47,282 bases of DNA from Zoogloea oleivorans. GTDB lineage: Bacteria > Pseudomonadota > Gammaproteobacteria > Burkholderiales > Rhodocyclaceae. Shown here piece after piece: positions 1 to 19,719 of the stretch; positions within the stretch are counted from its first letter, which is position 1; the number at the start of each line of letters is the position of its first letter. Under the pieces are notes generated by a model that had not been told where the DNA came from, searched no databases, and saw only the letters and a list, made by a program, of their open reading frames with translations. The stretch covers positions 1 through 47,282 of the forward strand of contig JAOAUC010000043.1 of NCBI GenBank assembly GCA_030157785.1, given 5' to 3'. The position numbers and the translations under genes were made by a program.

Positions 1-3000
1 TTGCTGCCGTGCAGCGTGTCACTGCCATCGCTCACCGACGTGGCGATCGTGAACGGTCTGTTGTAGTTCAGGCTTGGTGTGAAGCTCAGGCTGGCCAGCT
101 GTGTGTTGACGTCGGCGACCGCGCCGCTGGCCGTCCACACCCCGCTGGCGAAGGCCGAGGTGACGGCACCGGAGGTGGCGGTGTTGAGACTGCCGGCGGC
201 AAGGTCCGACAGGGTCAGGGTGACCGTGACATTGGGGCTGTCCACATCGCCCACGACGATCGCCGTCAGGGCGAGCGTGGTGTCTTCCGTATAGCTCTGC
301 GCCGTGTTCAGGTTGCTGGCTGTCGGCGCATCGTTAGTTGCCGTGATATTGACCGTCGAACTTCCGCTGGCGGCAAGCGCGCCTCCGGAACCTTGAGCGC
401 CGGTATTGCCGTCGTTGAAGGCCCAGTTGATCTGGACGCTGGACGGTGGGGTATCTGAGGCGTTCACGTAGGCAAGCGAGTTCATGAGCTCGTTGACACG
501 CACCTGCGTGGCATTGCCGTTGAACGTGAGACTCAGAGTGCCGGCCGAGTTGGTCGTTACGGTGCCCACATTGACCCCACCAAGCAGCAGGCTGCCGCCT
601 TCGGTCAGTGCGGCAAGATTGCCGCTTGCCGAGAAGCGATCCAGGGCGTTGGCGCCCCCATTACGCGTCAAGGTCAGCGTTGCGCCGTCGAAATTGTTGT
701 CGGCAGACAGATCGGGGTCAAAGATGCTTGCGTCGCTGTCGATCACAGCCGGTGTGCCGTCCTCGGTGTAGGTGACGGTTCCGCCCAGGGATGTGAAACC
801 GGGCGTTTCATTGACCTTACTGACCGTAACTGCAATGGCCTGGGTGTCTGCCACAAAGCCGTCGCTTACTTCGACGATGACGTTGTAGATGTTGTCACCG
901 CCCACATCGGACGGTGCTTCGTGGTCAGGCGCCAAGGTGAAGAGCAGGACGCCCGTAGTAGCGTCGATCGTGAACTTGGCCTGATCGTCGCCGCCGGTGA
1001 TCCGGTAACTGAGTTCGGCCGGGGCGCTGTCCGCATCGGTGGCCGTTACCGTTGTCACGGCCGTGGTGTTCTCGTTCACGACTACGCTCGCGCTCGCGCC
1101 ACCACCGTTGCTGGTGATGACCGGCACGGCGGGCGGCGTGTAATTGATGACCAGGTAGGGACGCAGACTGACCGTGCCGTACTCGGACGAGGCGAAAGCC
1201 CAGTTGTCGGCACCCGGGTTCTGGGTGATGAAGGCCCAGCCATGGTTGGCCGCACCATCTGCCCAGGCTTGTACGGTAGCGGTCAGCCCGCTGATGGTGT
1301 TCCACCCCGCGGTACCGGAACTGAAGGTTGTCTCGGCCGAGCTGGCCGCTTCGCTGCCATTGGTCTGGACGCCCGTGCCAAGGGTGTTCCAGGTGGCGCT
1401 CTCCGACCAGGTACTGAGCATCCGGTAGAGGGATATCGTGTCGGCCGCATCACGGTTGGTGACATAGAACGACAGCGACGCCGAGTTGATCGTGGCCCCG
1501 AAAGGGATTTGCCCGACGGCGCTACCGAACAGGTTGTCGAACTTCAGCAGGCCTTGCGCAAGCGGCGAGCCATCATCTGTAAGAACGGTGGTGGCGCTGC
1601 CGTAGGCGGTGGTCGGTGTGTTGTCCTCGACGTAGGTGTCTTGGGTGCCGGTGTAGCCATCCACCCCTTCCTGGTAACGGGTGGCGCCTACCTGGACGTG
1701 GACGAGACGGGAATCGGTCAGCGCGCCACCGCCGGTATTGCCCTGATCGCTGGCGTTGAGGGTAATGGTGGCGTCACCGTTGTAGGCAGTGGCTGGGGTA
1801 AAGGTCAGCCCTTCGAGCGCAGCATTGATGTCGGCGAGACTGCCGCTAAAAGTCAGCATGCTGTCCACCGTGCCGTCGCCAACAGAAAACGTCAGCCCCG
1901 CGATGCTGCCGAGGGTGAGCGTACCGTGGGTGGCAATCAGGCTGGCCTCGATGGCGGCGCCACCGGCATCCGGATCGGCGATGGAGAATGAATTGCCATT
2001 GGCGACGCTGAAAACCAGCGCCGTGCTTACGGCGGTAACCTGCGCCCCCGGCGTAGTGTTGTCCGGCGCGTCATTCACGGCAGTGATGTTGATCGTTACT
2101 GCCGCCGACCCACTGGCGGAGCTGCCACTACCGCTGCTGCCCAGATCGTCCACTGCCAGGGTCAAGGTGTCGCTGGCGGGCGGCGTGTCGGTATCGATCA
2201 GGTAGGCAAGGCTGCTGCCCAGATTGCCGGCCAGCAGATCGTTGATCTGAGCTTGCGTGCCCTCAAAGGTGAGACTGGCGGTGCCGGTGCCACTGATCGT
2301 CACGCCGGTGCTGCCGGCCGATGCGGCAAGCACGCCGGAGGCCACGTCAAGCGTAGCCCGGATCACGGCATTGCCGGCATCCACATCGGAAATCGACATG
2401 CCGGTGCCTGCCAAAGCCAGGGAAAGCTGCTCGGTGGCAGCGTAGCCGGGCTGGGTAATGGTGGCCAGCGGCGCTTCGTTGGTGTTGGTAACGGTAACGA
2501 ACAGAGTCTGCGTGTCGGCGGCGCTGTTGCTGTCGACGACCCGGACGATCACCTCATAGACGTTGTCGCCATTGGCGTCGATGGCGTTCTCGTAGTTTGG
2601 GGCAGACACGAAGCGCAACTCGCCGGTAACGCTGTCGATGCTGAAGGCGGTCTCGTCGGCACCGCCGCCAAGGCTGTAAACCAGCCCTGTGCTGTCCGGA
2701 TCAACGGCCGTCACCGTGCTGACGGCCGTCGTGTTTTCTGCAACAAAAATGATGGCAATGACATCGCCACCATCCGAAACAAGGGTTGGCGCGTCGTTGG
2801 ACGGGATGATCGTCAAGGTGCCGCCAACCACATTGCTGGTGCCGCCATCCCCATCCTCCACGTAGCCGATCATGGTCCGGACCGCGGTAGACGGGGCATC
2901 GGAGACATTTTCGTAGGTGATGTTGCGGGCGATGGCCTGCACGATGGCGGACGTGGCGTTGGAGTTGAAACTGATGATCAGCGGTGTGCTGCCATCGGTG

Positions 3001-6000
3001 CCTCCAGCCCAGTCACCGACCACCATGTTGTTGAAAACCACGCTACTGCTGCTTATGGCGATCTGCCCTGCCCCCGATCCTTCGTTGCGGATCGCAATGC
3101 GGTCTTCGGGCTGCCCGTTGCTGGAGAAATACACGACCATCCGGCCGCCGTCGAAATCAGCCGAATCCACGTCGCTGATGCTTGCGGTTGGCGCCACGAT
3201 GACCGGGCCTGCGCTTTCCGGATAGTTGGAGTTGCCGGAAATGAAGGAGACGGAAGGCGCGTCATTGACCGGCGTCACCGTAATCATGAGCGCCTCCGAA
3301 TCGCTCTGCGCACCCCCTGTCCCGCTGTTGCCCTGGTCGCTGAGGTCGATCTGCAGCCAGGCGGCACCGCTGAAGCCGGAGGATGGTGTGAAGACCATGC
3401 CGTCCAGGGCGGTATTGATGTCCGCCACCGTACCCGAGATATCGATCATTCCGTCAGCCGTGCCATCGCCGGCCTGGAAGGTGAGCCCGGCAGTGCCGGC
3501 CAGCGTGATGACACCATTGCCGGCAGAAAATGTCACCCGAACCGGCGCCAGCAGTGCGTCGGCATCGCCGATGGTGACCGGATTGCCTGTGCTGGTGCCG
3601 AACGTGATTGCAGCGTCCTCGGCTACTGACTGGGCGGTGGGCAGGTTGATGACTGGTGCATCGTTTACCGCCTCGACCAGCACCGATATATCGACGTTGT
3701 TGCTGGTCGTGCCGTCACCCTCTACAAGCACCAGGCGCACGGTACGGGTATTGTCGGAAATCGCGTCGCCGCTACTGCTGAAGCTCAGGTTGCGCGCCAG
3801 CGCCTGCACGGCGAGCAGATCAGCTGCAGCGTTGAAGCTCACCACCAGGGGGGTACCACCAGTCCCGCCCGAGACGGTGCCGATGACAACCCCTCCGTAG
3901 GTGAGGTTTGCGCCACTGAGTCCGATCTGCCCCACACCGGTGCCGTCATTGCGGATCGCCAGTACGTCGCTGCTGTTGCCCATAGCGGTCAGGCTGGCTG
4001 TCAGCGTGCCGCCGGCGAAGTTGGTGGAATCCACGTCGGTGACGAGGATTCCGCTATCCAACATCACGGCCGGCTGGTTCTCGACATACGCCACGCCCCC
4101 CCCCGATGGGCTCAGTACGGGCGGATCGTTGAAGTCGGTAACAGCCACCCCGGCCGAAAACTCGGAGGTGGTGGAATGGCTGGCGTAGCCCGCGACGCTT
4201 TGCGTGGCTGTTGCGCTCAGGTATTCGCCCTCTGCAACGCCGACCGCCAGGGTCGTACTGACCGAGGCGTTACCCGATGCGTCAGTGGCCACATTGAGAA
4301 AACCCAGGTAGCGCTGGCCTTCGCCGTAGCCGCTGGCATCGAGGCTGGCACTGGCAAAGAACTCGATGCGGTAGTAGCCATTCGCCACACTGTTCAGGCT
4401 GCCACTGATGAACAGTTGCCCGGCGCCATCAGCGAAGGCTGTTGCGATGACCGGGTAGTTCTGAAGGGCGTTGGCACCGGAATCGCCGTCACCGGCATCG
4501 TTGGCGGTAACGCCACTGGCATCCAGATCGATCCCCAGTCCGGTGTTGGCGTAAATGCTGTTGCCGAGCACGCGAGTGGCCGACGTCGTCGTGCTGACCA
4601 CCACGCCCGGCCCGATATTGCCGGCGATCACGTTGCCCTGGCCGGCCAGGGTGCCGCCGATCAACACATTGGTGGAGCCGCTATTGGACAGGATTCCCCC
4701 TGTCACGCCGGTGCCACCGCCATTACCCAGTACGGCGCCGGTGGCTCCCAGCCCGATGGTGTTGCCTTGAATCGTCACGCCGTCGGCGTACAGGTAAATG
4801 CCGCCGTGGGCGCTGCTCCAGCTGGCATTGGTGTTGCCGGAGATCAGGTTGTCGGCAATCGTGGTGTTTGCTGCCAGGGCATCGACCACCACGCCGAAAC
4901 CGCCGTTTGAACGTGCCGCAGTGCCGGCGGCGTCGACGCCGATGTAGTTGTTGCGAACAAGGTTGCCCGACGTGCTTGCGCCGGTAAGATAGACGCCGTA
5001 CTGCGTGTTTCCTGCAATGACGTTGCCCGCGGCAGCCGAAGCGCCGCCAATGGTATTGCCACTTGCACCGGCAGAAAGCATTACGCCGGCCTGACCGTTC
5101 CCTACTGCGTTGCTCCCACTGGCATCGAGGCCGATGTAGTTGCCCTGCACCACGTTACCGGAGGACGCACCGCCAAAGTAAAGCCCGTTGGACGCGTTTC
5201 CGGCAATCACGTTACGCTCGGCAGCCGAAGTGCCGCCGAACTGGTTGTTGTTTGAATCTATGAGGTAAACGCCATGCCATTGATTGGCGAGCGCCGCGGT
5301 GCCGGCTGCGTTCAGGCCAATCAGGTTGCCAAGGATGAGGTTGTTATTCGATCCGTTACCCAGGTAAAGACCGGGGCCGTAATTGCCCGACAGCAGGTTG
5401 CCATCGTTCGCACCTGTGCCGCCAATCTGGTTGCCGGACGACCCCCACAGGTTAATGGCGTTATTGGTTGGCGCAGCCGTGGTGCCATCCGCACTGGTGC
5501 CGATACGGTTGCCGACGATACGATGACCACCTGAGTCGGCCATGTCGATGCCGTCTTCGGTGAAATTCTGGATCACCAAGCCACGTATCGTGCTGCCGTC
5601 GGAGCCGGTGTAAAGCTGCAGGCCATCCTGCACGGTTCCACCGCCATTGATGACCACCACCGGCTTGCTGCCAGACGTGGTCCAGTCGGGCTCGGTGCTG
5701 CCGTCAATGGTGATTGTGCCGGTGATGGCCGGCAGAATTGAAGCAAGGTTGATGGTGTGCGCGCCGCCTACCAGTGCATCGGCGATATCGAAAGTGATGG
5801 TGTCCGCCCCGGCCGTATTGTTGGCCGCGATGATCGCTTCCCGCAGGGATATTTTGCCGTCCGCCCCCTTGTCGAGAATCAGGGCGCCAATGCTTGATGT
5901 GTCACCGCCAAGCTGATCCGCCGTCGTGGTGACGACCAGCTCGCTGGCCACGTTGGTGACTGTGACGGAAATGCTCTGCGTGTCGGTCAGGGAGCCATCG

Positions 6001-9000
6001 CTAACCTGGACGACGAGGTCGTAGACATTGTTACCGCCGCTGTCCGTCGGGTTTTCAAAGTCGGGCGCGGTAAGGAAGCGCAGGACGCCGGTGCTCGCGT
6101 CAATCGAAAACTTGTTCTTGTCCACACCAGCGGAGAGGCTGTAGGTCAGCGTGCCGGAAGGTATGTCGGCATCGGTGGCAGTCACAGAGGTCACTGCGAT
6201 GGTGTTCTCGGCCACCGAAATCGATGCAGGTGCACCGTTTCCGTTGCTGGTGATCACCGGGGCGTTGTCGTTGACGCCATTGATGGTGATGATGAAGCTG
6301 CCCGAGGAGGTGCTGCCGACGCCGTCGTTCACGCTGAAGGCGAAGCTGTCTCCGCTGCTCTCCGATCCGTTCTGGGTGTAGGTGACGAGCCCGGCGTTGA
6401 TATCGGCCTGTGTGAAGCTGCCCGAGCCGGCAAGGGCCACGCCGTTGCGGTACAGGGTTCCGTTGGTCGGTATGGCGGTCAGCGTGTAGGTCAGCTGGGC
6501 AGCGGTGTTATCCACGTCGCTGGTGGTCAGCATCGCCGCCGTAATCACGTTGCCTGCTGAGCCCTCGCTCAAACTGGCGCCGGCATTGACGGTGATGCTC
6601 TGCTCGTCGTTGACGGCATTGATCGTCAGCGAAACGGTGTCGGTTGCCGACGAGAAGGCGCTGGAACCGCCGCTCACCGTGGTGTCGGCGAGGCTGCCGT
6701 TACTGCCCGAGCTGCGGTCCCAGGCCCGGATGGTGACGGCATTCGCCTGGGTGCCGTTGTAGTTGCTGTTCGGGACGAAGTACACCCGGGTCAGGCTGTC
6801 GGCTGCGAGCAGGCGCGCGCTGGCGGCACCGACAGAACCGAGGGTGCTCCAGTTGGAGCCCCCGTTGACCGTGTAGTACCAGGTGCCCGATGTGCTGTTG
6901 GTGGCCACGACGGCCACGCCAAGACTGGCGCCGGCGTCTTCGTCGGTCACGTTGTTCCAGCCCGTGCCGTCTACATAATCGACCAGGGCGGAGATGAGGG
7001 TCCCGACGGCGCCCAACGGCGCACCCGAGTCTTCCTGTTGCGCGGTCAAGGCGACTGCCGGCGTGGTGTTGAGCAGTGGCGCTTCATTGACGTTAGCCAC
7101 CGTCACGGCGATTGCCTGGGTATCGCTGCCTCCTGCCCCGTCGCTCACCTGTACGGTCACGTCATAGACGTTGTTGAGCCCCGCATCGGTCGGCGCCTCA
7201 TAGTTTGGCGCAGAGATGAAGCTGAGAACACCGGAGGCATTGATGGAGAACTTCGCCGCGTCAGTACCCGAAAGCGAGTAAGTGGCCGTGCCACCATCCA
7301 CGTCGGACGAGGTGACAGTGGTCACCGCCGTGGTGTTTTCTGCCACGCTGACGCTGGCGGTCGCCCCACCGCCATTGCTGCCGATGACTGGGGCGTCATT
7401 CACCGCACTCACCGCCATCGCAACAATGGCCTCCGCACTGGCCTCTCCGCTGCCGTCGGAAACCCTCAGGCTGACGGTACGGGTCGCCGTACTCGGGTTC
7501 TCGCTGGCGTCACGGTAGGTAATGTTGCGCACCAGCGCCTGCACCGCCGCCACCGTTGCATTGCTGTTGAAGGTCACCGTCAGCGGTGTGCTGCCGTTGC
7601 CGAAGCTGCCGCTGTAGGTGCCGATGATCACGCCACCGTAAGTGACGTTACTTCCTGAAATCCCGATCTGGCCCGCACTGATGCCTTGGTTGCGAATGCC
7701 CAGTTCGTCGGTGGCCGTACCATTGGCGGTAATCTGGTAGAGCAGTTGCCCGCCGTTGAAAACGGCAGTGTCGTCATCCGTCACCGTTGCTGCCGCGTCG
7801 TAAATGGCTGCCGCGTTTTCCACATAAGTGGCACTGGAACCGCTGATGACCAACACGGGGGGGGACTTGCTGGCGTAGCGCTGCATGAACACGCCGTCAC
7901 TGTCGCCCGACCCGTTCCCGCCCCAGACCACCACGGCGTGGCCTTTCGTATCCACCGCCACCGAGGAATAGAACTGCTCCCCGCTGGTCGTCGTGTTCAC
8001 CCGCACCTCGCCCGTCAAGGCATCGCCGGACGAGTTATATTGCCGGACGTAGACGCCACGCAGACTGCCGTCCTGCTGATTGCTGTTCCATGTCACCAGG
8101 AATCCGCCAGCCCCGGACGACGCCACCATCACCCGCGTCTGTGCATCGGTTACCGTTGTATTGATGCGGAACTCGCCTCCCAGCGCAGTGCCTGCAGCGT
8201 TGTAGCGCTGACCATAGACCCCCAGGTTGCTGCCATCCTGCTGATTGCTCTGCCAGACGATGACGAAGCCGGTGGTGTCCATGGAGATTGACGGAAACGC
8301 CTGGGCATCCGCAGTCGTCGAATTGACGCGGAATTCGCTGCCCTGCTTGGTGCCGGCGGCATCGAAGCGCTGCGCGTAAATACCGAAGGTCGATCCGTCC
8401 TGCCCGTCGCTGGACCAGGCAATGACGAACTTTCCGGTCGAGTCCATCGCAATCGACGGCACCTCCTGGTTGGCGGCCGTATAGGTATTGACCAGAAATT
8501 CATTGGAGAGCGCCGTACCGTTGGCCGCAAAGCGGCGGGCATAGACTCCCCAACTGTTGGCAACGTCCTGATTCCAGCTCACCCAGGTGACGACGAAATT
8601 GCCCGAACCATCCACGGCAACGGCAGGCGCAGCCTGGTCATAGGTCGTTGTCTGCGCGACGCGGAACTCCGAGGCATCCAGTGCCGTCCCGGCAGCGTTG
8701 TAGCGCCGCGCATAGACACCCAGATTGCTGCCGTCCTGCCCAACGCTCTGCCAGACGACGACAAAATTGCCGGAGGAATCCATCGCCACCTCGGGCCACT
8801 CCTGGTCCCCCGAGGTGTAGGTATTGACGCGGAACTGCGCGCCCTGGGCCGTACCGGCGGCGTTGTAGCGCTGGGCGTAGATTCCGATGCCGCTGCCATC
8901 AACGCCGGAGCCGTCCTGCCAGACCACGACGTAGTTGCCGTTGGCGTCCATGGCCACGGTCTTCGTTCCCATCATGGGTTCCTGGGATCCGCTGGTCGTT

Positions 9001-9710: not shown

Positions 9711-9714
9711 CCGC

Positions 9715-10638
9715 TCAGCGACGCTGTTTGTCTTTGCTCAGGCCGAGGCTAGACTCCATGCGCAGTCCACCCACGCTACGCGTGGCAAAACGCTCGGCAC
9801 TACCTGCAGCAGACGGCGCAGACTCGGCGAAAGTGATCCGGCAGCGCAAACCCGCCGGCAATTGATGGCTGGCATTGGGCAACGACAAACGCACCCGAAA
9901 GGTATTGCTGGCAGCATCCACGACCTTGTCCACCAGCGTCACCATTGCATCGACAGCCTGTACGTTAGGCAGATCCGGTTTGACGCTTGCTACATCGCCC
10001 ACCTGGATGGCGCCAAAACGGGCCGACGGCACGATCACCTCGACCCGCAAAGGGTCGATCTTCGCGACCCGGAAAACCGGTTTCTCCTCGACGCGCTCGC
10101 CGACCGATAAGTAACGCTCGACCACCACTCCGTCAAATGGGCTGCGGATCGTGCGCAATCCGACCTGGGCCTGCGCTACACCCAGCTCACGGCCCCACAC
10201 CCGCTGCTGCTCGCGTGCCTGGGCCAGCTTCTGATCGGCCATCTGAAGCTCCGTCCGGGCCTGATCCAGCGCCTGCTGGGCAATGAAGTTGCGGGCCAGG
10301 AGGTCTTCCGCCCGCCCCATTTTTTTCTGTGCAAAATCCCGGTTGGCCTCGGCAGAGCGCAAGTCGGCATCAGCCGTTGCGCGAGTCCGCGCCACCTCGG
10401 CCGTCGCGCGCTCCACATCGCTGCGCAGCACGCCCAGAACCTGCCCCTTGCGAACCAGGTCGCCCCGGTCGGCCTTGAGACCTTCCAATACGCCAATGAC
10501 CGGGCTGCCCAGATCCGCCACCTTATCTGGCTCGATCAGACAGCCCAGCGTCTGTGGCCCGGCGGGCGGCGCTGCGGCAAGGGCAAGGCCGACGCAAGAA
10601 GCGCAAAGCCAAGCCAGAATCCATCTGTGCATTCTCAT
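9715..10638 (-). CDS. Periplasmic adaptor (RND/HlyD-type membrane fusion protein)
   Basis: 307 residues from the ATG at 10638; a second ATG at 10632 is also possible. The start overlaps the SecA-like stop as TAATG and follows a GGAG, so a longer frame reaching 10959 is rejected. Residues 1-22 are a clear signal peptide (WILAWLCASCVGLALA). The mature part has a split lipoyl domain (VIGVLEGLKADRGDLVRKGQ and IRSPFDGVVVERY), a long coiled-coil hairpin rich in Ala, Arg, Glu and Gln, and a beta-barrel region (residues 200-275). This is the architecture of periplasmic adaptors of RND pumps. No RND pump is present; its neighbours are the SecA-like ATPase and the giant protein. I infer a link between the inner-membrane exporter and an outer-membrane channel. 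Confidence 0.88.
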   Translation of the reverse strand: MRMHRWILAWLCASCVGLALAAAPPAGPQTLGCLIEPDKVADLGSPVIGVLEGLKADRGDLVRKGQVLGVLRSDVERATAEVARTRATADADLRSAEANRDFAQKKMGRAEDLLARNFIAQQALDQARTELQMADQKLAQAREQQRVWGRELGVAQAQVGLRTIRSPFDGVVVERYLSVGERVEEKPVFRVAKIDPLRVEVIVPSARFGAIQVGDVASVKPDLPNVQAVDAMVTLVDKVVDAASNTFRVRLSLPNASHQLPAGLRCRITFAESAPSAAGSAERFATRSVGGLRMESSLGLSKDKQRR

Positions 10639-12593
10639 TATTCTCCGGGACCGCCAAAGGAAAGCCCCCGCTCCCACTCCCGATCCGCCAGCAACAGACC
10701 ACTGCGGGCGCGCCGTTCCTGGTGCGCCTGCCTCCATTGATGCCATGCCAGCATCGCCCTCAAACACGCAGGGCTTACCAGCAAGCGTTGCATTGCATCC
10801 CTTCCACACCACTTGGCCACAACGCCCAGCAAAGGCAATTCGGCCACCCGCGGCGTCTCCAGGCTGATCCACGTTTCCACGCTGCCCGGATCGCCCTGCC
10901 GGGCACAGCGCCCTTCGAGTTGCCGGTCGATCCGTCTTGACGCATTGACCTGACAGCACATCACGTGAAGTCCCCCTGCTGCTGCGACACCGGCAGCCAA
11001 CGGAATATCCGTTCCCCGCCCAGCCATGTTCGTTGCAACTGTCACCTGCCCGGCCTCGCCAGCGCAGGCCACAATCGCCGCCTCTTCAGCATCGAAACGG
11101 GCATTCAAAACCGTATGTGGAATGCCCGCTGCCACAAGACATGCCGAGAGTGACTCCGACTCGGCCACCGATGAGGTTCCCACCAGCACCGGTTGCCCCG
11201 CCTCACGGCACTCTGCGAGCCTGTCGGCGACAGCACCCCACAAGGCGCTTCTACTGTCATATATACGGCAGGCAAGGGTTTTCCTTGAGCTGACTTTGCG
11301 TGAAGAAACGCACACGACATCAAGTCCATACACCTCCCGCAGTTCACCCCGGGCCTCCTTGAGGGTGCCGCTCATGCCACCAAGGCGGTGATAGCGCGGA
11401 AAGAAACGCTGAAAAGTGATCTGCGCCAAGGTCTCGGTACCTGGGGACGGACGCAGCCCCTCCTTCAGTTCGACCAGCGTATGCAAGCCCCGTGACCACA
11501 CCCTCCCGGGGGCAGCCCGCCCGGTAATTTCATCGATGATTTCGATTGCCCCGTCCCGCACCAGATAGCTCACATCCCGCCGATAGACGTGGGCTGCCGC
11601 AAGGGCCATGCTCACCACCTCTTCTCGCAGACGGGCCGACCGCCAGCGCCCCCCCAGGGCTGCTGCCTTCTCGCTCAGTGCGCTGCGGCCTGCCGTGGTG
11701 AGCTCGACGCGCTGCCCGACGCCGTCGATCCGGAAATCCCGCGTTTCCTGCAGCCCCGTCGCCAAGGTCCAGGCCTGCCAGAAGAAGGCGCGCCCGGCAC
11801 TGTCACGAACCTGCCGCGACAGGATCAACGGCATCATTGCCTCATCAATCAAAAGGCTATCCGCTTCGTCCACAATGGCCATGCACAAGCCGCGCAGCAA
11901 GGACCGCTTGCCTTCGGTCTCCCGCAGGGCGGCTACCCGGCGTTGCAGATCACTGCGCGCAAAACGCCGCTGCAGCCCGTCGCGCAAGTAATCAAAAACC
12001 ACCTCGCGGGCCGTTACATAGCAAATGGAAGCCCCATACGCGACGCGACGTTGCCCCTCATCCATGGGTCCGGTAACAAAGCCCACTTGCAGGCCAAGAC
12101 GGTTAAACAACGGGGCCAGATTCCGGGCATCCCGCTCCACGAGATAGTCGTTGGCCGTGAGCACATGTACCGGCGTGCCGGCCAGGGCACCCACCGCTGC
12201 GGCCAGCGCTGCAGCCAGGGTCTTGCCCTCCCCCGTCGCCATCTCGGCCAGGCGGTTGTCCAGCATGATCAAGGCTGCGCGGATCTGGGTGTCGTAGGCG
12301 TCCATCCCCAAACTGCGACGCGCCGCATCGACGGTCGCGGCTAGCGCTTCCACGACCCGTTCCGCAGCAAGTCCGTCGCGCCCGATTCGGGCTTGTACGG
12401 CCTTTAGGCGCGCGGAAAACGCAGCGTCGTCCAGCTCCCGCCAGGCTATTAACGCATCCCGCACGGCATCGACTTGCTTTCCGTAAGGGGCCCGCTCCCA
12501 TGGCCAGCGGACCCGGGGGGGCTCGCGACGCTCCGGGTAAGCCCCCCAGACCATACCGGGCAGAGGCACACGGGCTTCGAGCAGGTGGATCAT
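10638..12593 (-). CDS. Shortened SecA-like ATPase of the exporter operon
   Basis: 651 residues from the ATG at 12593, which overlaps the upstream TGA as ATGA; a start at 12644 would add 17 residues. SecA signatures are in order: MDAYDTQ, Walker A EMATGEGKT (residues about 117-125), Walker B VDEADSLLIDEA (241-252), RDVSYLVRDG and IIDEITGR (340-359), GGMSGTL, NMAGRGTDI (522-530) and GRCARQGDPGS (561-571). Both motor halves are intact. Housekeeping SecA is usually about 850-900 residues. Here the stretch between LIDEA and RDVSY, where the preprotein-binding domain lies, is roughly half length, and only about 80 residues follow the GDPGS motif, so the scaffold/wing region is reduced and the C-terminal zinc-binding tail is absent. 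I infer a dedicated motor for exporting the giant protein. Confidence 0.9.
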   Translation of the reverse strand: MIHLLEARVPLPGMVWGAYPERREPPRVRWPWERAPYGKQVDAVRDALIAWRELDDAAFSARLKAVQARIGRDGLAAERVVEALAATVDAARRSLGMDAYDTQIRAALIMLDNRLAEMATGEGKTLAAALAAAVGALAGTPVHVLTANDYLVERDARNLAPLFNRLGLQVGFVTGPMDEGQRRVAYGASICYVTAREVVFDYLRDGLQRRFARSDLQRRVAALRETEGKRSLLRGLCMAIVDEADSLLIDEAMMPLILSRQVRDSAGRAFFWQAWTLATGLQETRDFRIDGVGQRVELTTAGRSALSEKAAALGGRWRSARLREEVVSMALAAAHVYRRDVSYLVRDGAIEIIDEITGRAAPGRVWSRGLHTLVELKEGLRPSPGTETLAQITFQRFFPRYHRLGGMSGTLKEARGELREVYGLDVVCVSSRKVSSRKTLACRIYDSRSALWGAVADRLAECREAGQPVLVGTSSVAESESLSACLVAAGIPHTVLNARFDAEEAAIVACAGEAGQVTVATNMAGRGTDIPLAAGVAAAGGLHVMCCQVNASRRIDRQLEGRCARQGDPGSVETWISLETPRVAELPLLGVVAKWCGRDAMQRLLVSPACLRAMLAWHQWRQAHQERRARSGLLLADREWERGLSFGGPGE

Positions 12594-14737
12594 GCCGTCG
12601 GGTCGAAACGGCGCAGGAAGAGCTGTTTCAGGCGACGCCCCCACTGGACAACAAGCGGCGTCCAGCCGTGGTCAAAGCGCACCCAGGCGCGGCCGCCGGC
12701 CCGCTCCTGGACGCGACCATCCAGTACCACGTCGAAGACAAATACCGGCGTTGGGGTCTGCAGATGATCCTTGTCCGCCGGATCCACCGGAAAGCTGCCG
12801 CCGGCATGCTCGCCGAGGGCCGCACTGGGCAGCTTCTCGGTGGCGGCCGGAACGGTTCGCAGCAGGCGTGCAGGTATCGACTCGCCAGGCTGCTCAGCCA
12901 GTTGTACCGTCACGCCCCGGGTATCGCCGCGCACCAGCGCCGCTACGTCCTGTTCGACCGCAACCCGCAAACTGGCTGGTTCACCGGTCAATATGTGCCC
13001 AAGCAGCGCTCCGCGGGGCACAAAAGCCCCTTCCGTGTCGGACTGTCGGGGCATCACCAGCATCCCCGTCACGCCGGCCCGCAGGACCAGCAAACCCTGA
13101 AGCTCCTGGACACGGGCCAGCTGAGCCTTGACCCGGCTGATCTCCTCGGCCACGTTGCCGGCCTTCACCGGGTCGCGCAGCATGGCTTGGTAAAGATCGG
13201 CATCGAGGGCATTGAGCTGACTGTTCAGCCTGGCAGAATCGGCAAGCAGCCGGCTATCCTCGAGTCGGACCAGCACCTGGCCGGCCTCTACCCGATCACC
13301 GTGACGGGCCTCAAGAGAGACAATGAAACCCTCGGCGCCCGTTCGCAACTGGGCCTGCTCGGGAATCCACACCACGCCTTGCGCCACGCTTGCAAAAGGA
13401 AAAGGCACGCCAGCCAACAACACCAGCAAACCAACACTGATTCCCGCCCCGGTACGCAGAACCCGGCGTCGCATGACTTCGGGCAGTGCCATTTGCAAAA
13501 GATTGCGCCAAACCAGGAAAGCCGGCTTGAGGACTATCGCAAACGCCACCCCCGCGCCCGCCAGCAGCCCCAGAACCATCGACCAGCTACCGATCCAGCT
13601 CACAATCGCCAGTGAAATGCCAACCCGGTACACACCGGAAAGCGGGGCGTAAAAGTACAACCAGGGTTTCTCCCCGCGGCCAGGCTCCGGCGAGGGCACA
13701 TTCGGAATTCCCACCACACGGTTAAGAAGCACGTAGCGCCACCAGGCCTTGCTGCGCGTCGCCAGGTTGGGCAAGTCAAGGGCATCGCAAAGAACGTAGT
13801 AACCATCAAAGCGCAGCAGCGGATTACCATTGAAGAGCACCGTCGACACTCCCCCAATCACGGCTACCACCAGCGCTGTGTCCCGCACCAGACCTGGCTC
13901 GACAAGCAACCACACGATCAGTGCCATAGCGGCAATGGCCATCTCGGTAATGATCCCGGCTGCGCTCACGACCATCCGCTGGGCCGAATACCGGAAGGCC
14001 GACGCCGCCGATGCATCGACAAAGGGGGCCGGCGTCAGGAGCATCAGGCTGATGCCAACCTGATGCACCTCGCCGCCAAACCGGCGCACGGCCAATGCGT
14101 GGGAAAGCTCGTGAATCGCCTTGATCGGCGGATACAGCAGCCAGGCGATCAACATGAACCGCGGCGTTCCCATCCAGGTTCGGGCGTGGGATTCGAGTTC
14201 GCTGAAATTCATTGCCGCAATCGACAGCCCGACCAGCAAAAGCGTTAGCCAAGCAAGCAGCAGGGGCCATGAAAACAGCACGCGAAGCCAGGGCTCGAAG
14301 CGATCCAGCAGCGCGCTCGGATCCCCCAGACGCACCCGGAACGCCAACGGATTGACGGCCAGACGGCGCTCCCGGCGCTGCTCCTGCTGCTCCCGGTGAA
14401 AGATTGCTTCCACATCGGGCGTGATTTCACACTGGACAAGGCCACGCTGGTTCAAATGGACGAGCAGACGCACGATCTCGTCCTGTGTCAGGGCCGCATC
14501 CGGGTCGTGGGCGTGCAGGGCCTCGCTGACGGCGTCAACCGTGTGGCGGCCATCGCAACGACCGACGAAGGCGTAGGCCGCCGCATTCATCCGGTGAAAA
14601 CGCCCGCTGACCGGATCGGCCAGTACGTACCAGACCTCATCCCGGTAGATCTGCCGCGTGACCCGCACCTGCGAACGGAGACGCGGATGCAGACCCGCTA
14701 CCCGGTACCACTGGTTGCTGAAGACGCTCACGTTCAT
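12590..14737 (-). CDS. PqqD-like / M50 zinc metalloprotease / HlyD fusion membrane protein
   Basis: 715 residues. Residues about 32-105 form a PqqD-like winged-helix domain (YVLADPVSGRFHRMN). A membrane region with several helices starts near residue 150 and carries HELSH at 209-213, the HExxH zinc site, plus NPLLRFDGYY with D311 as the likely third ligand. These are hallmarks of M50/site-2-protease-type proteins annotated as putative peptide zinc metalloproteases. After a helix at about 432-450, residues 455-610 form a periplasmic HlyD-like lipoyl and coiled-coil region. PqqD-like domains bind leader peptides in RiPP pathways, so this one may read the N-terminus of the giant protein; that is inference. 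Whether the protease acts in cleavage or only as a membrane scaffold is unknown. Its stop overlaps the SecA-like ATG. Confidence 0.9.
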   Translation of the reverse strand: MNVSVFSNQWYRVAGLHPRLRSQVRVTRQIYRDEVWYVLADPVSGRFHRMNAAAYAFVGRCDGRHTVDAVSEALHAHDPDAALTQDEIVRLLVHLNQRGLVQCEITPDVEAIFHREQQEQRRERRLAVNPLAFRVRLGDPSALLDRFEPWLRVLFSWPLLLAWLTLLLVGLSIAAMNFSELESHARTWMGTPRFMLIAWLLYPPIKAIHELSHALAVRRFGGEVHQVGISLMLLTPAPFVDASAASAFRYSAQRMVVSAAGIITEMAIAAMALIVWLLVEPGLVRDTALVVAVIGGVSTVLFNGNPLLRFDGYYVLCDALDLPNLATRSKAWWRYVLLNRVVGIPNVPSPEPGRGEKPWLYFYAPLSGVYRVGISLAIVSWIGSWSMVLGLLAGAGVAFAIVLKPAFLVWRNLLQMALPEVMRRRVLRTGAGISVGLLVLLAGVPFPFASVAQGVVWIPEQAQLRTGAEGFIVSLEARHGDRVEAGQVLVRLEDSRLLADSARLNSQLNALDADLYQAMLRDPVKAGNVAEEISRVKAQLARVQELQGLLVLRAGVTGMLVMPRQSDTEGAFVPRGALLGHILTGEPASLRVAVEQDVAALVRGDTRGVTVQLAEQPGESIPARLLRTVPAATEKLPSAALGEHAGGSFPVDPADKDHLQTPTPVFVFDVVLDGRVQERAGGRAWVRFDHGWTPLVVQWGRRLKQLFLRRFDPTA

Positions 14738-14750
14738 GGGAGGGGATTCA

Positions 14751-16241
14751 TCAGCTACCTGTCCAGCCCCACACCGCCAGGCGGAGCCAGTCGGTCAGAC
14801 GGTGGGTCCAAGCCCATAACAAAGGCTCCCTGCCGGCAGTGATACGCGCCATGCCACGGAGGCCGGGACGCAGGCTGTCGGGTATATCTGCCAGCGCCGC
14901 TTCCACCTCGAAAACGTTGTGCCCTTCCACCGCCGTCGCCATCGGGGTAATGCGCGTCACGGTCATGGGCAAGGAATCCCAGGGCAGCGCAGACAGGGCC
15001 AGGCTGCCCGGCTGACCTACCCGAACCCGGGCAATATCCCGCTCATCGACCTCGACGATAACCCTGAAGCGCTCCCGCGGCGCCACCGTGAGGAGCACGT
15101 CCCCCCGCTGTACCGGCGCCCCCAGCGACTGGGTCAAGTCACCGCGGATAAGCACGCCGTCGAAGGGAGCCACGATGTGGCTTCGCCCGATCTGCCCATC
15201 CACCAGCGCCAGCTGGGCGCGAGCCTCCTCGGCTTTCGCCTGGCTGATCACCAGTTGGGTTCGATCTGCGCGGGCCATCGCCGCCGCGTAAGCGTTTTCA
15301 TGCTGGGCGAGTTCGCTGGACCACTTGCTCCGCTCAAGCTGCAGATCCTGCTCGGCCAGCTCGGCAAGAACCTGACCAGCCTTGACCAGATCACCAGGCC
15401 TGACCAGGGTCTGCTTGAGAAAACCGTCCGCCGGCGCCACCAACACCCGCTGGATCTCACCTTCGACACGGGCATTGCCACCAACCCGGAACTCGAAGGG
15501 TACAGCCAGCAGTACCGTGACCACCGTCAACGCCATGCCGATCCCGATCCGCAAGCCCCCACTACCGGGGGCCCGCACATGTGCCCAGCCTCGCCGCAGA
15601 CGGTCGCGTACGCGCTTGCGCCAGGGCCGCTCGCCATGGCGCATGAAGTGCAGCACCGGCCCGACCAAAGCAACCGCGTGCTCCAGTTCGGCAATGCGCT
15701 CCGACGAAAGCGCTGCCGCCCGGCGGAACTGCAACAACACCGCGCCCACCAACTCATGCATAACAACAATCGGAATGGAACATACCTGGCCGGCCTCCCG
15801 ACGCAACAGTTCCTCATGAGCAAGCACAATCCGCGGCGGCTGATCGAGAGGCACCGGAGCAAGGACAGTCGCGGCCTGCTCAATGGCTTCATCCATGGCG
15901 GCACCGATGGCGCGCAGCATTTCCGTCCGCCCTTCGCCAATACTCCCGTGAGAGAGCGCGACGATACGGACAAAACGGTCTTCGACGAAGCCAACCGCCA
16001 CCCGCTCGCAGTCCAGACGAGTTGCCAGTTCCGAGGCAAAGGCCATCGCTGACTGCCCGAGGCGGTCATGGGATACCACTGCGGCCTGCAGCGCAAGCAC
16101 GTCGAGTGGCTGAGTCTGACCGGAAGGGGATGGGGAACGGGTATTCAGAGCGTCAGTCCTGAAAGTATGTCGTCCTCGTATTGACGACGCATCGACGCAA
16201 AACTTTAGCCCTTCAGCAACAGGCCCCGCGTCATCTGACAC
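14751..16241 (-). CDS. GAF-domain HlyD-family membrane fusion protein
   Basis: 496 residues from a GTG at 16241. The true start may be further in, since residues 1-45 look unstructured and the GTG lies close to a terminator hairpin. Residues about 60-195 resemble a GAF domain (CERVAVGFVEDR, SIPIVVMHELVGAVLLQFRR). One membrane helix lies at 230-250. Residues 255-470 are a HlyD-type adaptor: lipoyl halves VLVAPADGFLKQTLVRPGD and HIVAPFDGVLIRGD around a short coiled coil, then a beta-barrel. The topology places GAF in the cytoplasm and HlyD in the periplasm. It is first in the exporter operon, 13 nt before the M50 gene. The GAF domain could gate export in response to a small molecule or bind a partner; this is not shown by sequence. 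Confidence 0.87.
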   Translation of the reverse strand: MSDDAGPVAEGLKFCVDASSIRGRHTFRTDALNTRSPSPSGQTQPLDVLALQAAVVSHDRLGQSAMAFASELATRLDCERVAVGFVEDRFVRIVALSHGSIGEGRTEMLRAIGAAMDEAIEQAATVLAPVPLDQPPRIVLAHEELLRREAGQVCSIPIVVMHELVGAVLLQFRRAAALSSERIAELEHAVALVGPVLHFMRHGERPWRKRVRDRLRRGWAHVRAPGSGGLRIGIGMALTVVTVLLAVPFEFRVGGNARVEGEIQRVLVAPADGFLKQTLVRPGDLVKAGQVLAELAEQDLQLERSKWSSELAQHENAYAAAMARADRTQLVISQAKAEEARAQLALVDGQIGRSHIVAPFDGVLIRGDLTQSLGAPVQRGDVLLTVAPRERFRVIVEVDERDIARVRVGQPGSLALSALPWDSLPMTVTRITPMATAVEGHNVFEVEAALADIPDSLRPGLRGMARITAGREPLLWAWTHRLTDWLRLAVWGWTGS

Positions 16242-16255
16242 ACTTTCGAAAGACG

Positions 16256-16305
16256 AAAAAAAAGCACTCCCTTGCGCCGCGGGGCGAAGGTAAGTGCTTT
16301 TTACG
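16256..16305. terminator. Bidirectional Rho-independent terminator
   Basis: The arms AAAGCACT (16261-16268) and AGTGCTTT (16293-16300) pair perfectly. An A-run lies before them and a T-run after, so either strand gives a stem followed by U residues. Inner bases CCTTGCGCC and GGCGAAGG extend the pairing. It ends transcription of the 94-aa gene on the minus strand and sits just upstream of the exporter operon, insulating it. Confidence 0.8.
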
Positions 16306-16340
16306 GCCGGAGGAGTCGTCCGGCAGCAGGCACGTGAAGC

Positions 16341-16625
16341 TTAACGGTCGGCCGTCAGCTGGGCGATAAACGCGGCTTCCTTTTCAGCGGGAAAGGCATG
16401 CTCGGCCAAAACACGCTGCACGGCGCGGGGATCACTGCCCTTGCCTGCCACGGTAAACTCGATCCCGAGCGTACGGCCATTGGCAGCCAAGGTCATGAAG
16501 GCACTACGCCAGCGCTGCGATTCTGCCAGCCGTTCGCGCACTTCGCTTTCGTTGCGGATTACGACGCCCGCGGCTTTGAGGGAATCCAGAAACTCTGCGT
16601 AGGACTCGTTGCAATAACTGCCCAT
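16341..16625 (-). CDS. Conserved-looking hypothetical protein, 94 aa
   Basis: The ATG at 16625 follows AGGAGA with 6 nt spacing, which favours it over an in-frame start at 16658. The product is a small soluble alpha/beta-like protein, MGSYCNESYAEFLDSL at the start, with no signal peptide, membrane helix or motif that I recognise. It is a single-gene unit: a terminator follows it at 16256-16305 and the chemoreceptor gene ends 122 nt upstream. Function unknown. Confidence 0.75.
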   Translation of the reverse strand: MGSYCNESYAEFLDSLKAAGVVIRNESEVRERLAESQRWRSAFMTLAANGRTLGIEFTVAGKGSDPRAVQRVLAEHAFPAEKEAAFIAQLTADR

Positions 16626-16747
16626 CGACTTCTCCTGTGAAATCCGGTGATCGCTCACCTGTCTTCCCTTAACGCAAACGTTAGCCGGGCAGATGACACG
16701 ATTTCAAAAAAAACTTCAAATTGTTTTATCACCCCGGACCCAACGAC

Positions 16748-18256
16748 TCAAATATGGAATCGAGCCAGCGCACTGCGCAGGCTTTCCGCGTTGCCGGTGA
16801 GGGCCGTGGCTTCACTGGCGATATCGCTGGTTGCCACCGCAGACCGGTCGGCCATCTGGGAGATATGCTCCACATGGCGGGCGATCTCCCGAGCGGCCTG
16901 GCTCTGCTCCTCGAGCGCACTGGAAATGCTGGTCACAATGTCGCCCACACCATCGGCCCTGCCGGTGATCAGGTCGATGGAGTCACCTGCCGCCGCCGCA
17001 TGGGCGACACCGGTATTGACCAGCGACACGGCACTTTCGATACAGGCGAGCACCGACTCCTTGGCTCCGCGCATATCGTTCATCATGAGACCAATTTCAT
17101 TGGTCGCCGTCGTGGTTCGTTCGGCGAGCTTGCGTACTTCGTCTGCCACCACGGCAAAGCCGCGGCCCAGCTCCCCTGCCCGTGCCGCCTCGATGGCGGC
17201 ATTGAGGGCAAGCAAGTTGGTCTGATCGGCGATCCCCTTGATGATGGTGACGACTTCCGCCGCCCGTTCGGACTCACGTCCCAGCGCCTCGACCCGCTCG
17301 GCCGCGTTGCCGATTACGCCGGCGATACTGGCCATCTCGCCAGCAGCCGCCTTCACGACCTTGCTGCCCGCCATGGCGGCATCGCTCGAATCGGCCGACA
17401 AGCGGCGTGCGTCACCGGCATTGCCTGAAATCTGGCTGATGGATGCGGTCATCTCCTGCACTGCCGCAGCCATGGCAGTGGTGGAGTTGTTCTGGTCAGA
17501 AACACCGTCGGCAATGTCGATGGAGGTTTTCGTTAGGCGGCTGGCCAGCGATTGCAGGCTGTCAGCCGTGGTGCGGGCCTCGGTGAGCGTCCGACGCAGC
17601 TCATTCTGCATGCGTGCCACGGCCCCCAGAAGGGGCCGTTCCTCACACCGTTTGGCGTCGAAAGAATAGTCCAGGTAACCAGCGGTAACCCGACTGGAGA
17701 ATTCGGACACCGCTATACCATCCTCGACCATACCCTTGAGCAGACCGGCGATGAAACACAGCAAGCCCGTCTCCACCACCACATAGGCCGCGTGGACCAG
17801 CACCCGCACAATCCCGTCGACCTGCGGAAATATATATACGCCGGCCCCCGTCGCTTGCAGCCAGGCAAAACCGAGATGATGCACGGCGATCAGAGCCGCC
17901 GCCGCAAGCAGTGGACGCCAGTCGCAATACAACACCAGAAAGGCCAGCAACACGAAAATCCCGAAATGGGCTTCGATCGTTCCGCGGGTCTGCTGGATCA
18001 GCAGGGCGCAAAAGATCATGAAGGCACAGCCCACCGCTATCCGTGTCACCAACGCCCCCCGGGCACTGCGACTGAGCAGGAAGGGAACGAGGAATGCCGG
18101 CACCCCTACAGACAAGGCAGGCCCCCAGCTGTCGGTCATCCCGGCCACAACCAGGCACAGCAGGAGGTGCGCGCCAAGAGTCCAAATGAAGATAGTGTCG
18201 GCTCGCGCCCTGAAACTGCTCAGTCCATCCTCAGTTGCCATTGTTGCTGAACTCAT
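16748..18256 (-). CDS. Methyl-accepting chemotaxis protein with a multi-TM sensor region
   Basis: 502 residues from the ATG at 18256; a longer frame to 18508 is less likely. The N-terminal 200 residues hold about six hydrophobic segments (such as [20 protein letters not shown] and [19 protein letters not shown]) and no large periplasmic domain, so sensing probably occurs in the membrane. A short linker leads to the MCP signalling domain, with the hairpin tip [20 protein letters not shown] and then [18 protein letters not shown]. The product should form arrays with CheA/CheW, which are not in the window. The start codon overlaps the stop of a 74-aa ORF as ATGA, so the two may be coupled. The ligand is unknown. 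Confidence 0.93.
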
Positions 18257-18477
18257 CGCACACCCCAAAAAATAAACCTGCCTGACGTGGCACTGCATAC
18301 CTCGCCCGCCAATACCGACTCGACTTGCATCGACCACAGTTGTCCGGCAGAAATGGCAAGCCATGCTCCCAGTACAACCCAGGGCCATGCCAGCTTGACG
18401 CGCTGACGCGACGCGCGGAGCGTCCGTTTTTTGTTCTTGAACATGAATAACGGTTTTCCAATAAACCTGTGATTCAT
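18253..18477 (-). CDS. Small single-TM protein preceding the chemoreceptor (putative)
   Basis: 74 residues from an ATG at 18477 preceded by AAGGT. The product has a strongly basic N-terminus ([16 protein letters not shown]) and one hydrophobic helix ([17 protein letters not shown]). Its TGA overlaps the chemoreceptor ATG. The overlap and the membrane segment favour a real gene, possibly a partner of the receptor. No homologue is recognised, and it could instead be an upstream leader ORF. Confidence 0.45.
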
Positions 18478-18506
18478 AACGGACCTTTAGCCCCATCCTT
18501 GAGCGC

Positions 18507-18541
18507 AAAAAAAACCTGGACAGGAAAATCCGTCCGGGTTT
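18507..18541 (-). terminator. Rho-independent terminator of the relA-to-M14 operon
   Basis: Read on the minus strand, AACCCGGAC and GTCCAGGTT pair around a 10-nt loop, with one wobble, and are followed by a run of eight T. It lies 21 nt past the stop of the M14 carboxypeptidase gene and separates that operon from the chemoreceptor unit. Confidence 0.85.
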
Positions 18542-18561
18542 CTTCTTTGGGGTGATCCCGC

Positions 18562-19704: not shown

Positions 19705-19719
19705 GAAACGGGATTCCGG

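What the first reader, a model, noticed from the sequence alone, without database searches (positions are those of the whole stretch)
1..16241. Five-gene operon that looks like a dedicated exporter for a giant surface protein, unlike known secretion systems
Seen: GAF-HlyD, PqqD-M50-HlyD, shortened SecA-like ATPase, periplasmic adaptor and a giant DUF4347 repeat protein run in one direction with junctions of 13 nt, ATGA, TAATG and 4 nt. Known: SecA drives export through SecYEG, and HlyD proteins serve type I or RND systems with an ABC or RND partner. Here no ABC ATPase, RND pump or SecY is present. Inference: the SecA-like motor, M50 membrane protein and two HlyD proteins form a hybrid inner-membrane/periplasm exporter for the giant protein.
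Basis: partly seen in the sequence, partly recalled or inferred. Interest (0 to 1): 0.93.

Follow-up and report, generated by a model that had tools for sequence, protein, structure and literature searches.

The report
Likely exporter for LEPR-tagged giant proteins
Four genes that lie next to a giant repeat-protein gene in this Zoogloea-like bacterium recur together in many bacteria and travel with giant proteins that carry one short N-terminal tag (LEPR), so they likely form the machine that would carry such giants out of the cell; the gene set was described in 2015 without a known cargo.

Summary
In detail: five minus-strand genes with the stated junctions; the giant is cut by the contig start. 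GAF-HlyD, PqqD-M50-HlyD, truncated SecA and adaptor form a conserved block: in 80 fetched loci GAF-HlyD stands near the M50 gene in 74 of 74 assessable, SecA in 66 of 71. The block is not new: Kamneva et al. 2015 (PMC4452313) described it, with SecA as possible motor and M50 as possible pore, and named no cargo. New here is the likely cargo: giants starting with the LEPR-XLL tag (NF012209), up to about 14,000 aa. In 369 genomes, 27 of 29 with a tag hit at E<=0.001 have the M50 gene, as do all 23 with a listed short SecA. Within the genus the tag is in 14 of 15 genomes with the short SecA and 0 of 8 without. The window's genome has two blocks, each beside a tagged giant; its third DUF4347 giant is untagged and lies beside type I genes. 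Transport itself is untested.

The parts
14751..16241 (-). GAF-HlyD: N-terminal GAF-like region, a hydrophobic segment, periplasmic-type HlyD adaptor (496 aa from the GTG at 16241; the true start may be further in, as several relatives give about 450 aa)
12590..14737 (-). PqqD-M50-HlyD fusion, 715 aa; predicted cytosolic PqqD-like domain, membrane metalloprotease, periplasmic adaptor domain
14435..14629 (-). PqqD-like domain (residues 37-101), predicted reader of the tag
   Evidence: 28.2 bits, cut-off 23.4; profile match to PqqD 3g2b, E 1.5e-5
14099..14113 (-). HExxH zinc-protease motif (HELSH, residues 209-213); third ligand motif NGNPLLRFD ends at residue 311
   Evidence: invariant in 65 of 65; HExxH in 34 of 35 across subfamilies, the exception a fragment
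10638..12593 (-). Truncated SecA-like ATPase, 651 aa: both nucleotide-binding domains and the preprotein cross-linking domain kept; ends opposite residue 671 of 908 of the housekeeping SecA
9715..10638 (-). Periplasmic adaptor (307 aa from the ATG at 10638, with a signal-peptide-like start)
3..9710 (-). Giant DUF4347/cadherin repeat protein, cut off by the contig start (3,236 aa seen)
9642..9683 (-). LEPR-XLL tag of the giant (LIETFESRILYSAD, residues 10-23)
   Evidence: NF012209 match 22.9 bits, cut-off 17, at 9630-9683
9039..9548 (-). DUF4347 domain, predicted caspase-like cysteine protease fold (H115, C158)

Best explanation
The four genes travel with giant proteins that start with a LEPR-XLL tag and likely form a dedicated envelope-spanning exporter for them, in which the PqqD-like domain is predicted to read the tag in the cytosol, the truncated SecA would grip and push the unfolded chain, and the three HlyD-type proteins would guide it across the periplasm. 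Shown: the conserved block, its co-occurrence with the tag in two genome samples and at single loci, an intact SecA ATPase core that ends opposite residue 671 of the housekeeping SecA, and an invariant HExxH in the membrane protein. Inferred: the tag is an export address; the M50 protein cuts the tag and may also form the inner-membrane passage; an unlinked TolC-type channel completes the path; the DUF4347 domain acts later as a self-processing protease. Many relatives lack the short SecA, so there the housekeeping SecA or another energy source would have to serve.
For: Block: 80 loci kept of 584 confirmed: GAF-HlyD 74 of 74, short SecA 66 of 71, adaptor on the same strand 53 of 64 assessable. 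Class sample of 369 genomes (counted in 52): short SecA listed in 23, all 23 with the M50-HlyD gene (Fisher p 2.9e-22); tag hit at E<=0.001 in 29, 27 with that gene (p 4.8e-24). 100 relatives, tag at E<=0.02: 21 of 22 genomes with short SecA, 3 of 78 without (p 2.1e-17); counted from the same list at E<=0.001, 18 of 22 and 0 of 78. Within the genus 14 of 15 against 0 of 8. Upstream giants, a different protein type, carry the tag in 8 of 8 reached. Own genome: the two blocks adjoin tagged giants (C43; C46, 4,636-aa frame); the third DUF4347 giant (C78) has no tag and lies beside two ABC transporters, HlyD and OEP. Tag form follows the protease subfamily: 6 of 6 FDGA tags that have an M50 gene are with the distant subfamily, 43 of 46 SAD-type tags with the close one. 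ATPase motifs are invariant in 9 short SecAs.
Against: No transport experiment exists. Short SecA is missing from the listed matches in 30 of 53 genomes with the M50-HlyD gene; and one search show housekeeping-type SecA in nearly all of those examined. LEPR-type giants occur without a detected M50 gene in G195 and G332, and 26 of 53 M50 genomes have no tag hit at E<=0.001; at E<=0.05 only 36 of 52 tag genomes have the M50 gene. Of 12 DUF4347 loci in genomes without an M50 match, 2 carry a tag by my pattern (L274, L281) and one (L273) has a split, distant M50-HlyD-like gene. The type I pairing of an untagged DUF4347 giant is a single case; none of the 12 showed type I genes with my four queries (two of these loci are under 5 kb). 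No outer-membrane channel lies in the window's block; an OEP-type gene was found in 8 of 112 loci. Nine of the 42 loci with 6 kb on both sides showed no giant.
Confidence: 0.62

Rival explanations
1. The giants cross the inner membrane by SecYEG with the housekeeping SecA, and the block acts as an accessory: the PqqD-M50 protein cuts the tag or a membrane-held intermediate, and the truncated SecA is a helper, as in accessory Sec systems.
For: Relatives with tag, protease and adaptors in which only a full-length SecA was found; the protease motif is more widespread than the short SecA; an ordinary SecA is present in the own genome (C19).
Against: The tag does not look like a Sec signal peptide: best 12-residue hydropathy has a median of 1.45 in 56 tagged starts against 2.22 for the adaptor's own start, though one of the 56 reaches 2.28; no signal-peptide program was run. 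The three HlyD-type proteins have no role in this model before the periplasm.
Confidence: 0.22
2. It is an ordinary type I secretion system whose ABC transporter lies elsewhere; the SecA and protease are regulatory.
For: Three HlyD-type proteins; an untagged DUF4347 giant in the same genome sits beside a type I set.
Against: A type I-like ABC match (to one of two own-genome queries, ABC1) was found in only 9 of 112 loci; no short SecA was listed without the M50-HlyD gene in 369 genomes; the giant with the type I neighbours has no tag.
Confidence: 0.08
3. The block does not export the giant but modifies or senses it, like a peptide-maturation system with a PqqD-type recognition domain and an M50 protease.
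For: Best NCBIfam match of the middle protein is a peptide-maturation intramembrane protease, daptide_HExxH, 155.8 bits but below its 300 cut-off; GAF domain in relatives suggests sensing.
Against: A SecA motor and three HlyD proteins point to transport; the partners are giants, not short peptides.
Confidence: 0.08

Closest known systems
Secondary SecA_DEAD / type I-related locus (Kamneva, Poudel and Ward 2015, PMC4452313)
   Same: GAF-HlyD, Peptidase_M50, SecA_DEAD protein without the wing-scaffold domain, HlyD/biotin-lipoyl protein, no ABC transporter; the authors suggested SecA as ATPase and M50 as possible pore.
   Different: They named no cargo and called the broader role completely unknown; LEPR, PqqD, giant and DUF4347 do not occur in the held text. 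The window adds a DUF4347 giant in the operon.
Type I secretion system
   Same: HlyD-type adaptors; giant repeat proteins as cargo (recalled).
   Different: No ABC transporter in the block; the shared mark of the presumed cargo is N-terminal.
Accessory Sec systems (SecA2)
   Same: A second SecA linked to large surface proteins (recalled).
   Different: This SecA ends before the helical wing and two-helix finger (domain positions recalled); SecA2 models score far below their cut-offs; HlyD and M50 partners are present.
Peptide-maturation PqqD domains and M50 proteases (daptide, YydH/LiaK)
   Same: PqqD-like domain and intramembrane-type HExxH protease.
   Different: Fused to a HlyD domain and next to giants; M50 models score below family cut-offs.
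Tce1 of Pseudomonas aeruginosa (DUF4347, PDB 9qpe)
   Same: Fold and His-Cys pair of the DUF4347 domain.
   Different: Tce1 is a type VI effector; here the domain sits behind the tag in a giant repeat protein.

Membership tests
Secondary SecA_DEAD / type I-related locus (2015) | GAF plus HlyD protein | tested here: met
   HlyD above cut-off in the window protein; GAF only weak there (E 0.12), over a cut-off in relatives L036 and L058
Secondary SecA_DEAD / type I-related locus (2015) | Peptidase_M50 membrane protein | tested here: met
   M50 21.1 bits, below the 27.2 cut-off, as the 2015 paper also found it weak; HExxH and the NxNPLxxxD aspartate invariant in 65; long helices predicted between residues 157 and 442
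Secondary SecA_DEAD / type I-related locus (2015) | SecA_DEAD protein lacking the wing-scaffold domain | tested here: met
   No SecA_SW match; ends opposite residue 671 of 908
Secondary SecA_DEAD / type I-related locus (2015) | HlyD / biotin-lipoyl protein and no ABC transporter | tested here: met
   Adaptor above cut-off; none of the five operon proteins matches an ABC family
Type I secretion system | ABC transporter partner in the locus | tested here: not met
   a partner elsewhere in the genome is not excluded
Type I secretion system | Outer-membrane factor | tested here: inconclusive
   Not among the five operon proteins; 47 OEP matches in the own genome; an OEP-type gene in 8 of 112 loci
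Type I secretion system | C-terminal secretion signal of the cargo | not testable with these tools
   The giant's C terminus is beyond the contig
Accessory SecA2 | Match over an accessory SecA2 model's cut-off | tested here: not met
   Four SecA2 models at 333-419 bits against cut-offs of 725-1100
Accessory SecA2 | Partner SecY2 in the locus | not tested
   No SecY search was run; the operon's five proteins are not SecY
LEPR-XLL proteins (NF012209) | N-terminal LEPR-XLL domain over cut-off | tested here: met
   22.9 bits, cut-off 17
Clan CD (caspase-like) cysteine peptidase | Fold | tested here: met
Clan CD (caspase-like) cysteine peptidase | His-Cys dyad | tested here: met
   H111, H115 and C158 invariant in 21 of 21; activity untested
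PqqD / RiPP recognition element | PqqD domain over cut-off | tested here: met
   28.2 bits, cut-off 23.4
PqqD / RiPP recognition element | Binds an N-terminal leader | not testable with these tools
   Needs a binding assay or complex prediction

The most novel reading that the evidence does not exclude
LEPR-XLL is the address tag of a separate secretion route for giant proteins: a PqqD-type domain reads the tag, a SecA stripped of its SecY-contacting end drives the chain, and an M50 membrane protease fused to a HlyD adaptor is both the gate and the tag-cutter, serving several giants of up to about 14,000 residues per cell.
Probability: 0.35. Interest if true: 0.9.

Novelty: new member of a known kind. 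Interest (0 to 1): 0.7.

Why it matters
The locus was described in 2015 with no known cargo, and I found no function for the LEPR-XLL mark in print: one search listed two papers with the term, of which I saw the passage of one (PMC10868602) and only the listing of the other. Linking the two makes both testable: one deletion and one tag swap in a harmless laboratory strain would decide it. If the SecA moves chains without the SecY-contacting end, it would also be a new use of the Sec motor.

Tried and rejected
Rejected: a system without precedent (the 2015 paper describes the locus). Rejected: SecA as the universal core. Rejected: DUF4347 as the mark of the cargo: tagged giants upstream of many blocks belong to another protein type, and the own genome's type I-linked giant has DUF4347 without the tag.

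Led nowhere or weak: the fold search with the M50 model returned adaptor folds in its 50 listed rows, so the membrane protease fold rests on motifs and Pfam; no site-2 protease row was seen, which says nothing against it. The first ORF picker missed genes because antisense frames are long in this GC-rich DNA; searches replaced it. Frames of 637-763 aa in G312, G475 and G219 looked like possible short SecAs; one search shows housekeeping-type starts or tails (two run to the end of the fetched locus). Literature: all ten searches were used; only one search listed the 2015 paper. Of that paper I read parts 1-5 of 7 and ran a term search on it. Of PMC3482391, PMC10868602, PMC8262886, PMC13323088, PMC12288469, PMC11573180 and PMC8277102 I saw passages only. 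The statement that no cargo has been named rests on these searches; preprints and most subscription papers are not held.

Limits: at most 3 candidates per genome were scored, and the match list was cut, so genes may be missed. 'Short SecA' means frames up to 840 aa scoring 560 bits or more, chosen by me from the list. The 80 loci are the best of 584 by likeness to the M50 query and so favour the close subfamily. The two genome samples share G000 and G074. Shared ancestry was not corrected for in the Fisher tests. The roles of the SecA helical wing and two-helix finger, the leader-reading role of PqqD-type domains, and what type I and SecA2 systems usually carry are recalled and come from no call.
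Full report
What is there. The window is a whole contig (C43) of a 4.69-Mb draft genome; the closest named matches of its M50 gene are Zoogloea records. On the minus strand five genes follow each other with junctions of 13 nt, ATGA, TAATG and 4 nt: GAF-HlyD, a PqqD-M50-HlyD fusion, a 651-aa SecA-like protein, a periplasmic adaptor, and a DUF4347/cadherin giant that the contig end cuts after 3,236 aa.

The SecA. It keeps both nucleotide-binding domains and the preprotein cross-linking domain, with the ATPase motifs invariant in nine short SecAs. Its last residue aligns with residue 671 of the 908-aa housekeeping SecA of the same genome, so the part that in ordinary SecA holds the helical wing, two-helix finger and tail (recalled) is missing. 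Where sources name its listed relatives, they mostly say 'preprotein translocase subunit SecA', with some 'hypothetical protein', one helicase and one prepilin peptidase (best 120 of 7,441).

The middle protein. An AlphaFold2 model from 65 sequences has mean pLDDT 87.8. The N-terminal part matches PqqD (profile match to PqqD 3g2b). Long helices lie between residues 157 and 442. The C-terminal part resembles MexA-type adaptors. HExxH and the third-ligand aspartate are invariant in 65 of 65; across all subfamilies HExxH is kept in 34 of 35, the exception being a fragment.

The block is conserved. Of 31 loci around short-SecA matches (L036, L039-L068), 30 have an M50-HlyD match, all but the remnant L067; GAF-HlyD is seen in 28, the other two being cut by a contig end. 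Where the contig allows a look, GAF-HlyD is present in 74 of 74, short SecA in 66 of 71, the adaptor on the same strand in 53 of 64; in L087, for one, it is on the opposite strand. Of 42 loci with 6 kb on both sides, 33 hold a frame of 1500 aa or more or a DUF4347 match, against 0 of 20 control loci around housekeeping secA with such a frame, the longest being 1,303.

Prior description. Kamneva and colleagues (2015, PMC4452313; [quoted passage not shown] They suggested that SecA is the ATPase and M50 might form the pore, and wrote that the broader role is completely unknown. The words LEPR, PqqD, giant and DUF4347 do not occur in the held text. So the block is a member of a described kind; the cargo is the open point.

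The cargo. Two arrangements occur. In one, as here, a DUF4347 giant lies downstream. In the other, a much larger protein lies upstream. I fetched DNA further upstream in 11 genomes; the N terminus was reached in eight, in the same open frame (phase checked by hand from the coordinates), and all eight carry a tag, for example LEALEPRLLLSAD: six by the pattern, two (L162, L166) by eye with endings LLLSSD and LLAAD. In three genomes the frame ran on through the fetched DNA. Fifty-six distinct tagged starts give a mostly basic stretch followed by x-(F/L)-E-x-L-E-P-R-(L/I)-L-(Y/L/F)-S-A-D (the arginine and parts of the rest were required by my pattern). NCBIfam has this as LEPR-XLL, NF012209; the window's giant scores 22.9 bits, cut-off 17.

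Co-occurrence. In 369 genomes of the class (counted): the M50-HlyD gene in 53, short SecA listed in 23, tag hits at E<=0.001 in 29, DUF4347 in 45 (33 of them with the M50 gene). All 23 short-SecA genomes and 27 of 29 tag genomes have the M50-HlyD gene (p 2.9e-22 and 4.8e-24). The exceptions G195 and G332 carry tags ending LLSAS and LLSTS. At E<=0.05 the figure is 36 of 52, with many weak hits. Of the 53 M50 genomes, 26 have no tag hit at E<=0.001; many belong to a distant subfamily, in which most of the giants I could read carry an FDGA form of the tag. In 100 relatives, with tag hits at E<=0.02, 21 of 22 genomes with short SecA have the tag, against 3 of 78 without (p 2.1e-17); counted from the same list at E<=0.001 it is 18 of 22 and 0 of 78. 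The one miss, G012, has a giant starting LLETLDERILYSAD, and one of the three, G074, has the distant M50 gene. Within the genus the tag is in 14 of 15 genomes with and 0 of 8 without the short SecA (p 1.8e-5). These tests do not correct for shared ancestry.

A natural control. The window's genome has two blocks. One is in the window; the other, on C46, follows a tagged giant with a 4,636-aa frame. A third giant, on C78, has DUF4347 but no tag, and lies beside two ABC transporters, a HlyD and an outer-membrane efflux protein. This is one case: near 12 DUF4347 loci of genomes without an M50 match I found no type I set with four queries; two of the 12 carry a tag and one has a split, distant M50-HlyD-like gene.

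Pairing of tag and protease. Of seven FDGA-type tags, six have an M50 gene, always of the distant subfamily, beside them or in the same genome; the seventh (L274) has no M50 match. Of 46 SAD-type tags with an M50 gene, 43 are with the close subfamily (p 4e-6; L274 and three SAS/STS-type tags without an M50 gene left out). This fits, but does not prove, reading of the tag by the M50 protein.

What counts against SecA as the core. In 5 of 30 close-subfamily genomes (G171, G309, G325, G409, G468) no short SecA was found, although the tag is present; two more (G213, G484) are cut by contig ends. In 23 distant-subfamily genomes only G179 showed one, a divergent 571-aa form beside the M50 gene. The protease-adaptor protein is the constant part.

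Mechanism. My reading: tag read in the cytosol, unfolded chain driven by the truncated SecA where present, passage at or beside the M50 protein, tag cut there, guidance by three HlyD-type proteins to a TolC-type channel encoded elsewhere. Shown are the parts, their conservation and the co-occurrence. Binding, cutting, path and energy source are untested. The main rival is passage through SecYEG with the block as accessory.

Verdict. Real, conserved and meaningful; the machine was described in 2015, the tag and likely cargo are the addition. Transport remains to be shown.

Noticed in passing
L036 (own genome C46:46657-66000): Second block in the same genome (M50 gene 38%, SecA 43% identical), just downstream of a LEPR giant with a 4,636-aa frame.
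   Followed up: yes
L037 (own genome C78:1-20000), 2909-20000: Untagged DUF4347 giant (4,514-aa frame) beside two ABC transporters, HlyD and an outer-membrane efflux protein.
   Followed up: partly
L302:6599-8314: Divergent 571-aa SecA-like gene beside a distant-subfamily M50-HlyD gene; the other matches found with it in 34 genomes were 32% identical or less.
   Followed up: partly
L284 and L285: LEPR-type giants (tags ending LLSTS, LLSAS) in genomes where no M50-HlyD gene was found; perhaps another route.
   Followed up: no
L060:11870-19899; similar lengths in L064 and L065: A two-partner secretion pair (ShlB-type transporter and TPS-domain protein) directly behind the block in L060; similar-length neighbours in L064 and L065 were not tested.
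   Followed up: no
G087: Eight LEPR hits (one weak), frames up to 14,056 aa, in a genome with two short-SecA genes, so one block may serve several giants.
   Followed up: no
L099, L100, L117, L118, L142, L143 upstream giants, near their C termini: HExxHxxGxxH metzincin-like motif close to the C terminus, read by eye.
   Followed up: no
L067 (G040:C1): Short-SecA remnant with two stop codons in a genome without a LEPR hit: the block may decay together with its cargo.
   Followed up: no
L317 (G429:C60:66000-85999): A lone short SecA, with the other block genes on the same contig in L314 without a SecA between them.
   Followed up: no
window 16748-18508 (-): Chemoreceptor (MCP signalling domain) gene just upstream of the operon, same strand; a homologue was found in 5 of 14 loci of the genus.
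   Followed up: partly
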